From NCBI GenBank assembly GCA_008501785.1, contig QQUD01000513.1, positions 1 to 10,874 on the forward strand: DNA of 10,874 bases, read 5' to 3'. The stretch comes from Chloroflexota bacterium (GTDB taxonomy: Bacteria > Chloroflexota > Anaerolineae > Promineifilales > Promineifilaceae). This document shows positions 1,596-10,607 of the stretch, one piece after another. The notes below the pieces were generated by a model. That model saw only the letters and a program-made list of their open reading frames with translations, was not told the origin of the DNA and ran no database searches. Both the position numbers and the translations under genes were made by a program. Numbering within the stretch: position 1 is the first letter of the stretch; each line of letters begins with the position of its first letter.

Positions 1596-3659
1596 ATGGA
1601 TGCAGCTGCAAAAATTGCCAAACTTCGAGATGAGATTAATTTTCATTTGTACCGGTATCATGTGCTAGATGCACCGGTGATTAGTGATGCAGAGTATGAT
1701 GCGCTGTATCATGAGCTGGTGCGGCTGGAGCAGGCATATCCTGAGCAGTTGACGCCGGATTCTCCCACGCAGCGGGCTGGGGCAGAGCCGCTAGATGCGT
1801 TTGAAAAGGTGACGCATCCAGCGCCTATTTTGAGTTTGTCGAATGCATTTAATGCGGAAGATTTGTTTGCATGGCGCACGCGCATTGCGCGTTATTTGCC
1901 CGACGCTGAGATGAAACTGGATTATGTGGCGGAACCGAAGCTGGATGGATTGACTGTGGTGCTCACGTATCGGGATGGTGTGTTTGTGCAGGGGGCGACG
2001 CGGGGCAATGGCGAGATTGGCGAGGACATCACGCCTAATTTGCGCACGATTCGCAGTTTGCCGCAGCGGATTCCGGTGGACCGTGACAGCGGTGTGTCGA
2101 TTCCGTCGTATTTGGTGGTGCGGGGCGAGGCGTTTTTCCCGTTGGATAAGTTTGAGGCGTTTAATCAGAAGCGGCTGGAGGCGGGGGCACAGGTTTACAT
2201 GAATCCGCGTAATGCGGCGGCGGGATCGCTGCGGCAGTTGGATTCAGCGATTACGGCTAAACGGCCGTTAACCCTCTACGTCTACGATTTCATCGCCTGG
2301 GAAGGTGGTGAAGTGCCTGATTTGCAATGGGAACGGCTAGAACTGCTGCGGAAAATGGGTTTCCCCGTTTCGTCTGATAACCAATATTGTGCATCATTGC
2401 CGGAAGTTGCGGCAAGGTATGACGAGTGGATTGAGAAGCGCAATCAAATTAATTACGAAGTGGATGGCATGGTTGTGAAAATCAACAATCGGCCGTTGGC
2501 GGATGCGATGGGCTTTGTGGGCAAAGACCCGCGTGGCTCGGTGGCGATGAAGTTCCCGGCGCAGGAGAAGACGACAAAGCTGCTTGATGTACAGGTAAGC
2601 GTGGGGCGTACAGGCATTTTGGCTCCGGCGGCGGTGTTGGAACCGTTAGAGTTGGGTGGTGTGATTGTACGCAATGCGACGCTGCACAATTATGATGAAA
2701 TTGCCCGTAAGGATATTCGCATTGGCGACACGGTGATTGTGAAACGAGCGGGTGATGTGATTCCATACATTGTGGGACCGGTGGTGGATTTGCGGGATGG
2801 ATCGGAGCAGGTGGTGGAACGGCCGTTAACCTGTCCCGTATGTCATGAACCAGCCGTTGTCGTACCCGGTGAAGTCGCCATCTACTGCGATAATTTGGCC
2901 TGTCCTGAGCAGTTGGTGCGTCGTGTTGAATATTTTGTAGGTCGTAGCGCAATGGACATCGACAATTTTGGTTCTCAAACTGGCGCATTGTTGATCGAGC
3001 AAGGGTTGGCGCATGACATGGCAGACATTTACTTTTTGAACCGGGATGATTTACTGGCGCTGGAAGGGTTCAAGGAAAAGAAGGTTGATAATCTGTTGAA
3101 TGGCATCGAAACCAGCAAACAGCAGCCTGCGGATCGACTATTGACGGCGTTGGGGATTCGGTTTGTAGGCAATGTGGTGGCGGCGCTGCTAATTCGAGAG
3201 TTTGATGGCATTGATGAACTGGCAGCGGCGGTGCAGGAGCAGTTGGAAGCTGTGGAAGGGATTGGTCCGCAAACGGCTGTTTCTATCACCACCTGGTTTG
3301 CCAATGACCGCAATCGCGCCCTACTGGAAAAATTCCGCAAAGCTGGTCTGCAATTTGCCGCTGCACAACTAGACGAAGACGCAGATTCGTCAGATTCACT
3401 TGCTGGTTTAATATTTGTGATTACGGGCACACTGCCCACGTTGTCACGCAATGAAGCGAAAGCGTTGATTGAAGCGCATGGTGGCAAAGTGACTGGCTCG
3501 GTTAGCAAGAAAACTAACTATCTGGTTGCAGGAGAAAAAGCAGGCAGCAAACTTACAAAAGCTGTATCGCTTGGTGTGGCTGTATTGGATGAAGCGGGGC
3601 TGAATGATTTGGTAGAAGGGCGTGGAGAAGGGAGTGGAGAAGAGAATAATTCTCTTTAA
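1596..3659 (+). CDS. ligA: NAD+-dependent DNA ligase LigA
   Basis: Full-length bacterial replicative ligase of 687 residues, which seals nicks in replication and repair using NAD+. The N-terminal Ia domain ([20 protein letters not shown]) binds NMN. The adenylation domain has the nucleotidyl-lysine motif KLDG, with Lys115 in this numbering. The motif-III-like EVDGMVVK lies near 288-295 and the OB fold follows. Four cysteines (CPVC near 413-416, then Cys431 and Cys436) form the zinc finger. Helix-hairpin-helix repeats follow, then a BRCT domain from about 603 ([13 protein letters not shown]) to 676. The frame is open upstream to a TTG at 1554, but the ATG at 1596 is preferred: GAGG lies eight bases before it and the protein then begins like typical LigA. 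Codon use switches abruptly within the gene at the ACGGCCGT motifs at 2260 and 2818 and at a degenerate copy at 3272. The C-terminal tail is a short Glu/Gly-rich stretch encoded by a 12-bp tandem repeat (GTGGAGAAG twice, 3622-3642). Confidence 0.97.
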
Positions 3660-3686
3660 AATCCAATTCCTCAAGTGAAGAAAAAT

Positions 3687-9113: not shown

Positions 9114-9151
9114 TGGGTTATTAACTTTATTCATTTGGGGATATAGAAAAT
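9095..9151. promoter_or_regulatory. 13-bp perfect inverted repeat across the lyase promoter and start codon
   Basis: ATTTTCTATATCC (9095-9107) fills the spacer between the putative -35 and -10. Its exact reverse complement, GGATATAGAAAAT (9139-9151), covers part of the ribosome binding site and the first bases of the ATG. The arm centres are 44 bp apart, about four helical turns. If transcription starts upstream of 9095 the mRNA could hide the ribosome binding site in a hairpin. If it starts near 9120 the arms are better read as two operator half-sites. Which applies cannot be told from sequence. Confidence 0.5.
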
Positions 9152-10607
9152 GACAAATTTTGAATTACCGGCTAAAGGGCAGTCGAAAACGGCCGTTTTA
9201 ACTAAAATGCAGTCCATGCGTGCCACAGACGTGGCTTGGCAAGATGGCAAAGCACTCAGCCTCGTCTACTTCGCCGGAGAAGAAGCCTCCTCTGTCATCA
9301 AAGAAGCATACACCATGTTCTTCTCCGAAAACGGTTTGAATCCAACCGCTTTCCCCAGTTTACGTCAATTTGAAACCGAAGTAGTGAGCATGAGCGCGGC
9401 TTTGCTGGGCGGTGATGAGCAGGTCGTCGGCAACATGACCTCAGGTGGCACCGAAAGTATCCTCATGACAGTTGTCACCGCACGCGAGTGGGCGCGAGTC
9501 AATAAGCCTCACATCACCGAGCCTGAAATGGTGTTGGGCGTTAGTGTTCATCCTGCATTTGAGAAAGCTTCCCACTATTTTGGTGTGAAGGTGGTTCATG
9601 TTCCTGTTGGTGATGATTTTCGTGTAGATGTTGACGCGATGGCAGCTGCTATCACGCCCAACACGATTTTGCTGGTGGGATCGGCCCCAGCTTACCCGCA
9701 CGGCATTGTAGACTCCATTCAAGAGATTGCAGCACTCGCATTGCAGCACAAAATATTGTGCCATGTCGATTCTTGCGTCGGTGGGTTTATGTTGCCGTTT
9801 GTGCGTAAATTGGGATATTCAGTGCCAGACTTCGATTTTCAAGTGCCGGGTGTGACCTCAATGTCGGCCGATTTACACAAATACGCTTATGCTGCCAAAG
9901 GTGCGTCAGTCATCCTCTACCGAAACCGAGAGATTCGACGACACCAGCTTTTTGCATATTTAGATTGGCCGGGTGGCATTTATGCATCGGCTGGCATGTC
10001 GGGCACGCGCCCGGGTGGGGCAATTGCAGCTGCATGGGCAATCCTCAATTATTTGGGTGAGGAAGGTTATTTGGAGATTACGGAGAGGGTGATGAAAACG
10101 GCCGTAACCATCCGCACCGGTATCCAAAACATCCCAGACCTAAAAATCATCGGCACTCCCCACATGAGCATTATGGCCGTGGCATCCGGCACACTCAACA
10201 TCTACGAAGTCGGCGACGAAATGGCCGTTCGTGGCTGGTTTATCGACCGCCAGCAATTCCCGCCCACGCTGCATATCACTATCAATCAAGTGCATGTCAC
10301 TCGAGCCAACCAATTCCTCACAGATTTAGCCGAATCAACCGCCAAAGTACGCAAACCATCCTTGCAAAAAATGAGCAATTCATTGATTGTCAAAGCCGCG
10401 AATGCGGCAACCAGATATTTACCACAATCTTGGGTGAGCAAGCTCACAAAAAACGCCTCAACTATGTTAGGTGGGGGTGACGATGGCGGGGTGCCACAGC
10501 GATCAGCTGCCATGTATGGCATGATGGGATCTTTACCCAATCGGGGTGATATTCGTGAGGTCGTTTTAGACTTGCTGGAACAATTTACAATGCCACCATC
10601 CAAGTAG
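9150..10607 (+). CDS. PLP-dependent lyase/decarboxylase, sphingosine-1-phosphate lyase-like
   Basis: A 485-residue fold-type I PLP enzyme of the group II decarboxylase family. Its motifs run parallel to sphingosine-1-phosphate lyase: NPTAFPSLRQFETEVV (64-79), MTSGGTESILM (96-106, phosphate and cofactor binding), HVDSCVGGFMLPFVRKLGY (205-223, with Asp207 contacting the PLP ring nitrogen), SADLHKYAYAAKG (239-251, with Lys244 as the Schiff-base lysine) and SGTRPGG (284-290). The C-terminal AMYGMMGSLPNRGDIR segment is also typical. The family cleaves sphingoid-base phosphates to an aldehyde and phosphoethanolamine; close relatives decarboxylate amino acids such as glutamate or aspartate. No N-terminal membrane helix is present, so the enzyme should be soluble. 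GGGGA eight bases before the ATG supports the start. It is a single-gene unit between a terminator and a palindromic element. ACGGCCGT copies at 9189 and 10098 mark codon-use switches; the one at 10098 is the sharpest in the window. Family is secure; the exact substrate is inference. Confidence 0.9.
   Translation: MTNFELPAKGQSKTAVLTKMQSMRATDVAWQDGKALSLVYFAGEEASSVIKEAYTMFFSENGLNPTAFPSLRQFETEVVSMSAALLGGDEQVVGNMTSGGTESILMTVVTAREWARVNKPHITEPEMVLGVSVHPAFEKASHYFGVKVVHVPVGDDFRVDVDAMAAAITPNTILLVGSAPAYPHGIVDSIQEIAALALQHKILCHVDSCVGGFMLPFVRKLGYSVPDFDFQVPGVTSMSADLHKYAYAAKGASVILYRNREIRRHQLFAYLDWPGGIYASAGMSGTRPGGAIAAAWAILNYLGEEGYLEITERVMKTAVTIRTGIQNIPDLKIIGTPHMSIMAVASGTLNIYEVGDEMAVRGWFIDRQQFPPTLHITINQVHVTRANQFLTDLAESTAKVRKPSLQKMSNSLIVKAANAATRYLPQSWVSKLTKNASTMLGGGDDGGVPQRSAAMYGMMGSLPNRGDIREVVLDLLEQFTMPPSK

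What the first reader, a model, noticed from the sequence alone, without database searches (positions are those of the whole stretch)
2758..10165. Base composition flips from G/T-rich to C/A-rich at the palindrome: a strand-asymmetric mutational footprint
My hand counts of G/C in about 60 bp left, then right, of each motif: 2260, 22/14 then 16/14; 2818, 26/8 then 14/19; 4564, 20/4 then 9/18; 4703, 23/8 then 15/18; 5870, 18/11 then 14/20; 6474, 32/3 then 19/11; 9188, 14/7 then 15/15; 10098, 20/5 then 6/24. With the decayed 3272 site the pooled figure is about 204/71 left and 118/159 right. C is thus depleted on the strand running 5' into the motif, on both sides. Those are exactly the strands left as 3' single-stranded tails if the motif is broken and resected, so C-to-T deamination there would produce the pattern. 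The motif could be a recurrent break or recombination site, or a local replication-convergence point. The result is mosaic codon usage within single genes. The mechanism is speculation; the flip is visible.
Basis: partly seen in the sequence, partly recalled or inferred. Interest (0 to 1): 0.9.

Follow-up and report, generated by a model that had tools for sequence, protein, structure and literature searches.

The report
Genome-wide palindrome with strand-skewed flanks
In a group of uncultured Chloroflexota bacteria the eight-letter palindrome ACGGCCGT is repeated thousands of times per genome, and around the copies the two DNA strands differ in G and C in a way that looks like the trace of a repair or recombination process starting at the palindrome.

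Summary
The flip is real and general. The window (Chloroflexota; closest LigA relatives 77% identical) carries ACGGCCGT 9 times (0.14 expected). Relatives carry up to 15,176 copies per genome; two relatives use GCGGCCGC or TCGGCCGA instead. Around 2,114 copies in 63 sequences, silent (fourfold) positions on the strand running 5'->3' into the site shift from about G 0.37/C 0.37 to G 0.6/C 0.2, strongly to about 42 bp. A weaker tail reaches hundreds of bases and depends on the distance to the next site (G/C skew at 70-300 bp: 0.035 in 250-500 bp intervals, 0.168 above 900 bp). Random positions, other palindromes and cyanobacterial HIP1 lack it. Sites are strongly conserved (86-93% against 33-48% for similar 8-mers). 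Best reading: a HIP-class palindrome where strand-directed DNA processing starts, probably mismatch repair; MutL has lost its nuclease motif in 8 of 12 genomes, without a Pfam MutH. The mechanism is inferred, not shown.

The parts
2261..2268 (.). ACGGCCGT copy 1 (in ligA)
   Evidence: exact match; left 22G/14C, right 15G/14C
2819..2826 (.). ACGGCCGT copy 2 (in ligA)
   Evidence: left 26/8, right 13/19
3982..3989 (.).
   Evidence: left 10/22, right 12/20
4564..4571 (.). ACGGCCGT copy 4
   Evidence: left 20/4, right 9/18
4704..4711 (.). ACGGCCGT copy 5
   Evidence: left 23/8, right 14/18
5871..5878 (.). ACGGCCGT copy 6 (in PD40 beta-propeller gene)
   Evidence: left 18/11, right 13/20
6475..6482 (.). 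ACGGCCGT copy 7 (in minus-strand CAP/LysM gene)
   Evidence: left 32/3, right 19/11
9189..9196 (.). ACGGCCGT copy 8 (in PLP-dependent decarboxylase gene)
   Evidence: left 14/7, right 15/14
10098..10105 (.). ACGGCCGT copy 9 (in PLP-dependent decarboxylase gene)
   Evidence: left 20/5, right 6/24
   Evidence: 15 matches with up to one mismatch (9 of them exact), 2.9 expected
6483..9188 (.). longest inter-site interval: G/C skew -0.03 in the first half, +0.23 in the second
1602..3659 (+). ligA (NAD-dependent DNA ligase) used to find relatives
   Evidence: Pfam; 25 loci

Best explanation
ACGGCCGT is an independently evolved highly iterated palindrome (HIP class) of this Chloroflexota group, maintained thousands of times per genome, and DNA processing tracts start at it. 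SHOWN: enrichment, conservation between species, site-anchored G/C orientation bias with a strong zone of about 42 bp and a tail of hundreds of bp that depends on the distance to the next site, symmetry with respect to transcription, and, near the sites, C<->G rather than C>T change. INFERRED: the site is where strand-directed repair is entered (a nick, as at GATC with MutH in E. coli). The strand whose 5' end lies at the site is removed outwards and resynthesised, so the strand running into the site serves as template. Mismatch recognition is uneven (G:G is seen, C:C is poorly seen; recalled knowledge), so template-favouring repair keeps G and loses C on that strand and leaves transitions and A:T orientation nearly untouched. 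The 42-bp zone would need a further step (short patches, or a protein footprint).
For: Copies: 11,353-15,176 ACGGCCGT in 9 of the 25 relatives searched, e.g. 15,176 in G007 (7.5 Mb) against 183 for the reversed control. Conservation: 131/151, 127/137 and 172/199 aligned sites kept in three relatives, against 37%, 48% and 33% for other 8-mers with six G+C; 101 of 137 scored sites present in all four genomes. Flanks; 59 of 61 sequences with at least 5 sites show the bias. Interval dependence: pooled tail skew 0.059, 0.035, 0.088, 0.168 for intervals 100-250, 250-500, 500-900, 900-5000 bp; circular-shift z 2.4, 3.5, 9.3, 13.9; T/A skew -0.027 to 0.006. In the two longer classes G025 alone (0.086, 0.168) and the rest (0.089, 0.168) agree, as do genes on the two strands (0.086/0.091, 0.170/0.165). 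Substitutions: C>G 40/266 v G>C 47/681 within 45 bp, p = 2e-4; C>T not elevated. Repair genes: MutL_C in 12 of 12 and Pfam MutH in 0 of 12 genomes; the MutL metal-binding DQHA motif reads DQQA or DQEA in 8 of 12. A methyltransferase-like gene is present at 48% identity or more in 31 of 52 genomes, and in all 31 CGGCCG exceeds GCCGGC by at least 1.29.
Against: No methylation or nicking data exist here, and no nicking enzyme was identified. MutL keeps DQHA in 4 of 12 genomes (G014, G017, G027, G030), which show the same flank bias. The methyltransferase does not track the flank bias: it was not found in G005 and G021, which show the bias (0.099 and 0.220), and G015, G016, G019 have it with no clear bias around CGGCCG; shared ancestry may explain the association. 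In the tail itself current C>G (221/1878) and G>C (261/2405) rates do not differ, p = 0.36. Near against far, C>G is higher (0.165 v 0.113, p = 0.02) but the fall of G>C (0.071 v 0.091) is not significant, p = 0.12. In G025 alone the two shortest interval classes are not significant (z 0.6, 1.9) and carry A-over-T excess (T/A -0.095, -0.072). E. coli repair is bidirectional (recalled); the model needs a preference for removing the strand that starts at the site. The 42-bp zone is not explained by long tracts alone.
Confidence: 0.4

Rival explanations
1. Selection for an extended recognition context: a DNA-binding, uptake or chromosome-organising protein binds ACGGCCGT and prefers purine (G) on the incoming strand over about 42 bp each side, so flanks are selected base by base.
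For: Strong zone ends near 42 bp; close pairs of sites are scarce below 40 bp (84 spacings seen, about 151 expected); one-outer-mismatch sites keep a weaker bias; bias also at codon positions 1 and 2.
Against: Does not predict a tail of hundreds of bp that grows with distance to the next site; fourfold flank identity at 6-20 bp is only slightly above background (0.70-0.79 against 0.67-0.76), so individual flank bases are not held.
Confidence: 0.25
2. Recombination start site: the palindrome is cut (or is a Chi-like stop in both directions), 3' tails ending at the site invade a homologue, and biased conversion shapes the flanks.
For: Same strand geometry as 3' tails; the incoming strand is G-rich, the orientation in which known Chi sites act (recalled); one 12.8-kb stretch is 96% identical between two genomes that elsewhere are mostly 75-94% alike per kb.
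Against: No local rise in identity around sites beyond 20 bp; Chi sites are not palindromic and are about ten times rarer (recalled); no test of breaks was possible.
Confidence: 0.2
3. One reading: breaks with resection and C-to-T deamination of the exposed 3' tail.
For: Geometry and range.
Against: T is depleted at silent positions near sites, A equals T in the tail of long intervals, C>T is not elevated.
Confidence: 0.04
4. Birth bias: palindromes arise or survive where G-rich/C-rich transitions already exist, so the skew precedes the site.
For: Orthologues lacking a site still show part of the bias: at 10 sites present in one genome only, without site G 0.451/C 0.327, with site G 0.500/C 0.241 at 5-20 bp; at 14 sites missing in one genome only, without site G 0.500/C 0.271.
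Against: At 12 sites present in two of four genomes the bias at 5-20 bp is seen only with the site (G 0.539/C 0.297 with, 0.352/0.352 without); current near-site C>G/G>C rates favour G and silent positions turn over, so the bias is maintained, not only inherited.
Confidence: 0.08

Closest known systems
HIP1 (GCGATCGC) of cyanobacteria and the alternative HIPs described by Elhai 2015 (PMC4390886)
   Same: Eight-base palindrome at about one per 0.5-1 kb, within genes, lineage-specific variants, suspected link to methyltransferases and mismatch repair (PMC4390886: section 8 and the first of two parts of section 18 read, other passages found by term).
   Different: Different core (CGGCCG, not CGATCG), different phylum. 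HIP1 shows an extension within about 6 bp but no clear G/C asymmetry at 10-20 bp (fourfold 0.251/0.243; 231 sites), whereas here it is strong to 42 bp with a tail of hundreds of bp.
GATC / Dam / MutH mismatch repair of E. coli
   Same: Frequent short palindrome within repair range; MutL without the endonuclease motif in 8 of 12 genomes.
   Different: No Pfam MutH in 12 of 12 genomes; modification of the site unknown; motif eight bases and G+C-rich.
DNA uptake sequences (Neisseria DUS, Pasteurellaceae USS)
   Same: About one per kb, lineage dialects, inside genes (recalled).
   Different: Those are oriented, non-palindromic (recalled); flank gradients of hundreds of bp depending on the next site are not known to me; uptake was not tested.
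Chi (RecBCD/AddAB) sites
   Same: G-rich strand lies on the side where the 3' tail would end (recalled).
   Different: Chi is oriented and rarer (recalled); this site is palindromic.

Membership tests
Highly iterated palindromes (HIP class) | short palindrome far above expectation genome-wide | tested here: met
   9 v 0.14 in the window; in 18 of 25 relatives at least 2,887 copies, reversed control 46-459 in those
Highly iterated palindromes (HIP class) | found in coding and non-coding DNA alike | tested here: met
   1,801 of 2,114 sites in called ORFs, coding fraction 0.82
Highly iterated palindromes (HIP class) | kept beyond background between species | tested here: met
   131/151, 127/137, 172/199
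Highly iterated palindromes (HIP class) | accompanied by a methyltransferase that recognises the core | tested here: inconclusive
   no C5 methylase (PF00145) in 12 of 22 genomes, among them G001, G007, G008, G013, G025, G027; PF01555 hits in 17 of 17, over the cut-off in 15; one methyltransferase-like gene shared by 31 of 52, target unknown
HIP1 proper | sequence GCGATCGC | tested here: not met
   top palindrome is ACGGCCGT
MutH/Dam-type mismatch repair site | MutH homologue present | tested here: not met
   0 of 12 genomes with PF02976; E. coli control found
MutH/Dam-type mismatch repair site | MutL without its own endonuclease motif | tested here: inconclusive
   lost in 8 of 12, kept in 4 of 12; the C-terminal CPHGRP motif, read in 7 of 12, is altered in 4 (G001, G007, G010, G025) and kept in 3
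MutH/Dam-type mismatch repair site | site modified, nicked when hemimodified | not testable with these tools
   needs native DNA and enzymes
DNA uptake sequence | oriented, non-palindromic core | tested here: not met
   the core is a perfect palindrome
DNA uptake sequence | preferential uptake of DNA that carries it | not testable with these tools
   needs transformation assays
Chi site | oriented site recognised by RecBCD/AddAB | tested here: not met
   palindromic, so not oriented; the enzyme was not tested
REP / extragenic palindromes | intergenic, stem-loop-forming | tested here: not met
   85% of sites lie in called ORFs; arms show no complementarity beyond composition

The most novel reading that the evidence does not exclude
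A new, independent kind of palindrome-directed strand discrimination: a Chloroflexota lineage evolved its own counterpart of Dam/GATC/MutH, built on ACGGCCGT (GCGGCCGC and TCGGCCGA in relatives), allowing MutL to lose its nuclease. Unidirectional excision out of the sites combined with poor recognition of C:C mismatches has written the direction of repair into the genome as a G/C gradient between neighbouring sites.
Probability: 0.25. Interest if true: 0.92.

Novelty: new variant of a known kind. Interest (0 to 1): 0.78.

Why it matters
HIP palindromes have been described since 1995 (Robinson et al., as cited in a passage of PMC4390886) and their biological role is still little known there. 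Here is an unrelated palindrome in another phylum with a signal that HIP1 lacks: a directional, interval-dependent base asymmetry that tells which strand is template and how far the process reaches. This turns 'what are HIPs for' into a testable question (is the site modified, nicked, cut?) and gives a measurable readout in sequence alone. If the repair reading holds, it would be a new solution to strand discrimination, an open question in bacteria without MutH.

Tried and rejected
Hairpin or cruciform: rejected, no left-right complementarity beyond composition in 2,095 sites. Transcription or codon-usage effect: rejected, much the same on both sides relative to gene direction and, in the longer intervals, on both gene strands; intergenic sites show it too. 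Gene-scale skew artefact: random in-gene positions restricted to one gene are flat; circular shifts give a null of 0. General property of HIPs: rejected, HIP1 does not show it, 231 sites in 7 of 8 stretches (the Leptolyngbya stretch had none). CGGCCG alone: genomes rich in CGGCCG without fixed outer bases show little or none (G029 0.016, interval includes 0; G022 0.042, interval 0.025-0.061; G015, G016, G019 no clear step). C5 methyltransferase as cause: not consistent. Structure of the methyltransferase-like protein: good model (pLDDT 85.7) but only weak PDB matches to class I methyltransferases, CcrM among them, best E 1.7e-3, none at 1e-3; not decisive. Strand bias of current substitutions in the tail: not seen. 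Of ten literature searches, six aimed at this palindrome or at palindromes in this group: searches returned nothing; two returned listings in which I saw only Elhai 2015 and other cyanobacterial HIP1 or uptake-sequence titles as close.

Limits: no genome is held for the window itself; relatives are metagenome bins of unstated completeness, so gene absences are weak. Genes in my scripts are long ORFs, not curated calls. One search used 63 of 88 sequences held (at least 4 sites per 10 kb and over 2.5 kb); the others were left out. The quartet alignment covers 59,583 columns in all four genomes. Three stretches (G026, G028, G037) held no A, C, G or T and gave no counts. In one search my script read the wrong frame for 5 of 12 MutL loci; one search read the DQHA motif in all 12. 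One search was a malformed alignment (one real sequence) and was not used.
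Full report
WHAT WAS CLAIMED.

THE MOTIF. ACGGCCGT occurs 9 times in 10,874 bases; dinucleotide shuffles give 0.14 and none of 200 reaches 9. The window is from Chloroflexota: its LigA is up to 77% identical to Chloroflexota and Anaerolineae bins; six of the seven ORFs scanned match Pfam families. 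No genome is held for it, so I used the 25 genomes behind the LigA relatives. ACGGCCGT occurs there up to 15,176 times (G007, 7.5 Mb) against 183 for the pattern read backwards; 9 of the 25 hold more than 11,000 copies and 7 of the 25 fewer than 2,000. Some low ones use a different outer base: GCGGCCGC in G014 (38 in 20 kb) and TCGGCCGA in G017 (51 in 35 kb); others are rich in CGGCCG with no fixed outer base (G015, G016, G019, G022, G029). CGGCCG exceeds GCCGGC by more than 1.25-fold in 38 of 52 genomes (ratios by hand).

CONSERVATION. I aligned stretches of G007, G010 and G023 to 414 kb of G025 (identities 0.85, 0.88, 0.83 over 73-93 kb each). Sites of G025 are kept in 131 of 151, 127 of 137 and 172 of 199 cases, against 37%, 48% and 33% for other 8-mers with six G+C; ACGGCCGT ranks first or second of all 8-mers with at least 20 aligned copies. 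Of 137 sites scorable in all four genomes, 101 are in all four.

THE FLIP. Folding both sides onto the strand that runs 5'->3' into the site, 427 sites in 19 sequences gave G 0.344/C 0.214 at 10-20 bp; random positions were flat. At fourfold degenerate positions in genes (2,114 sites of which 1,801 in ORFs, 63 sequences) G/C is 0.73/0.13 at 6-8 bp, about 0.6/0.18 at 10-16, about 0.5/0.25 at 24-32, and 0.41/0.38 at 44-48; the first base outside the 8-mer is an exception (C 0.42, G 0.13). Random positions in the same genes give 0.37/0.37; other palindromes give 0.39/0.39 at 10-20 bp; inner-mismatch sites 0.47/0.26 at 5-10 and 0.40/0.35 at 10-20 bp (128 sites); one-outer-mismatch sites 0.44/0.33 at 10-20 bp; intergenic sites show the step. 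The effect is much the same 5' and 3' of the site in gene sense. Of 61 sequences with at least five sites 59 are positive, L006 only just; L005 and L008 were negative with 13 and 7 sites, and with more sequence G005 and G008 are positive (0.099 and 0.102).

TWO RANGES. Beyond 42 bp a weaker tail remains, and it depends on the distance to the next site. At 70-300 bp from the nearest site the fourfold G/C skew is 0.059, 0.035, 0.088 and 0.168 for inter-site intervals of 100-250, 250-500, 500-900 and 900-5000 bp. Circular shifts of the sites give about 0.00 with sd 0.025, 0.010, 0.009 and 0.012. In the two longer classes the values agree between G025 alone and the rest, and between genes on the two strands; in the two shorter ones they scatter, and in G025 alone they are not significant. 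Pooled T/A skew is -0.027 to 0.006, in the longest class -0.002; in short intervals G025 (down to -0.095) and the rest (up to 0.062) deviate in opposite directions. In the longest intervals the skew is still 0.088 at 450-800 bp. In the window all 8 intervals rise from C-side to G-side, p = 6e-4, although three of the rises are small. This behaves as if each site sends out a directional influence over hundreds of bases and neighbours cancel one another.

WHICH CHANGES. In the four-genome alignment, changes on tip branches at fourfold positions within 45 bp of the nearest site are C>G 40/266 and G>C 47/681 (p = 2e-4), C>T 41/266, G>A 145/681 (the set of 101 shared sites, counted and tested, gives p = 3e-5). 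Near against far, C>G is raised (p = 0.02), G>C and C>T are not significantly lowered (p = 0.12, 0.20). So G:C pairs are turned round; cytosine deamination is not raised. In the tail present rates do not differ (221/1878 v 261/2405, p = 0.36), which counts against a simple equilibrium there; parsimony favours the common base as ancestor and works against seeing it. Fourfold identity in the flanks is near background, so bases turn over while the composition stays.

NOT HIP1. In 231 HIP1 sites of cyanobacterial plasmid stretches G and C are nearly equal from 10 bp outwards. The GCGGCCGC and TCGGCCGA dialects show the bias; CGGCCG genomes without fixed outer bases show little or none.

ENZYMES. 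No Pfam MutH in 12 of 12 genomes; MutL_C in 12 of 12. The MutL metal-binding motif, DQHA(X)2E(X)4E (consensus from passages of PMC2965676), reads DQQA or DQEA in G001, G003, G007, G008, G010, G012, G023, G025 and DQHA in G014, G017, G027, G030. MutL without this motif is the state of bacteria with MutH (recalled). A 658-aa protein with split N6/N4-methylase matches is found at 48% identity or more in 31 of 52 genomes, all with CGGCCG over GCCGGC above 1.25; of the other 21, 14 are at or below 1 and 7 above 1.25. Shared ancestry can explain this, and it was not found in G005 and G021, which have the bias, so it is a lead only. C5 methylases (PF00145) are absent from 12 of 22 genomes.

MECHANISM. 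My best reading is strand-directed repair entering at the site, removing the strand that begins there, with uneven recognition of G:G and C:C mismatches (recalled) turning direction into a G/C bias. It would account for the range, the interval dependence, the C<->G character and the equality of A and T in the long-interval tail. It does not by itself explain the 42-bp zone, and no nick or modification has been shown. Elhai's model for HIP1 also invokes mismatch repair and a hypothetical MutH analogue (PMC4390886, section 18, part 1 of 2 read), but concerns how sites arise; its flank study (section 8 read) reports short palindromic extensions. Rivals are selection for an extended binding context, recombination start sites, and birth bias.

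NOVELTY. A HIP-class palindrome in Chloroflexota with a strand-asymmetric gradient was not found in six searches of an open-access library; most subscription papers and all preprints are outside it.

Noticed in passing
window 4915-4964 and 10627-10676; L026:7218-7272: Intergenic repeat pair (50 nt, 76% alike, both holding ATGGGACACAGAT) in the window, and a separate interspersed 55-bp stretch of L026 that matches many places in three relatives (listing capped).
   Followed up: no
G025:C2:20001-32852 v G010:C411: A 12.8-kb block 96% identical between two genomes that elsewhere are mostly 75-94% alike per kb: recent inter-species exchange or a binning mix-up.
   Followed up: partly
G033 (whole genome): A relative with TGCCGGCA 3,665 times in 4.0 Mb and ACGGCCGT only 14 times: perhaps yet another iterated palindrome.
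   Followed up: no
G022 and G014 (whole genomes): G022 has CGGCCG about every 195 bases (21,019 in 4.1 Mb) with only 132 GCCGGC; G014 has 13,814 CGGCCG and only 51 GCCGGC in 8.0 Mb, which looks like avoidance of the reversed palindrome.
   Followed up: no
L189-L196 (MutL genes): MutL of eight relatives has lost the DQHA nuclease motif although no Pfam MutH was found.
   Followed up: partly
   Followed up: yes
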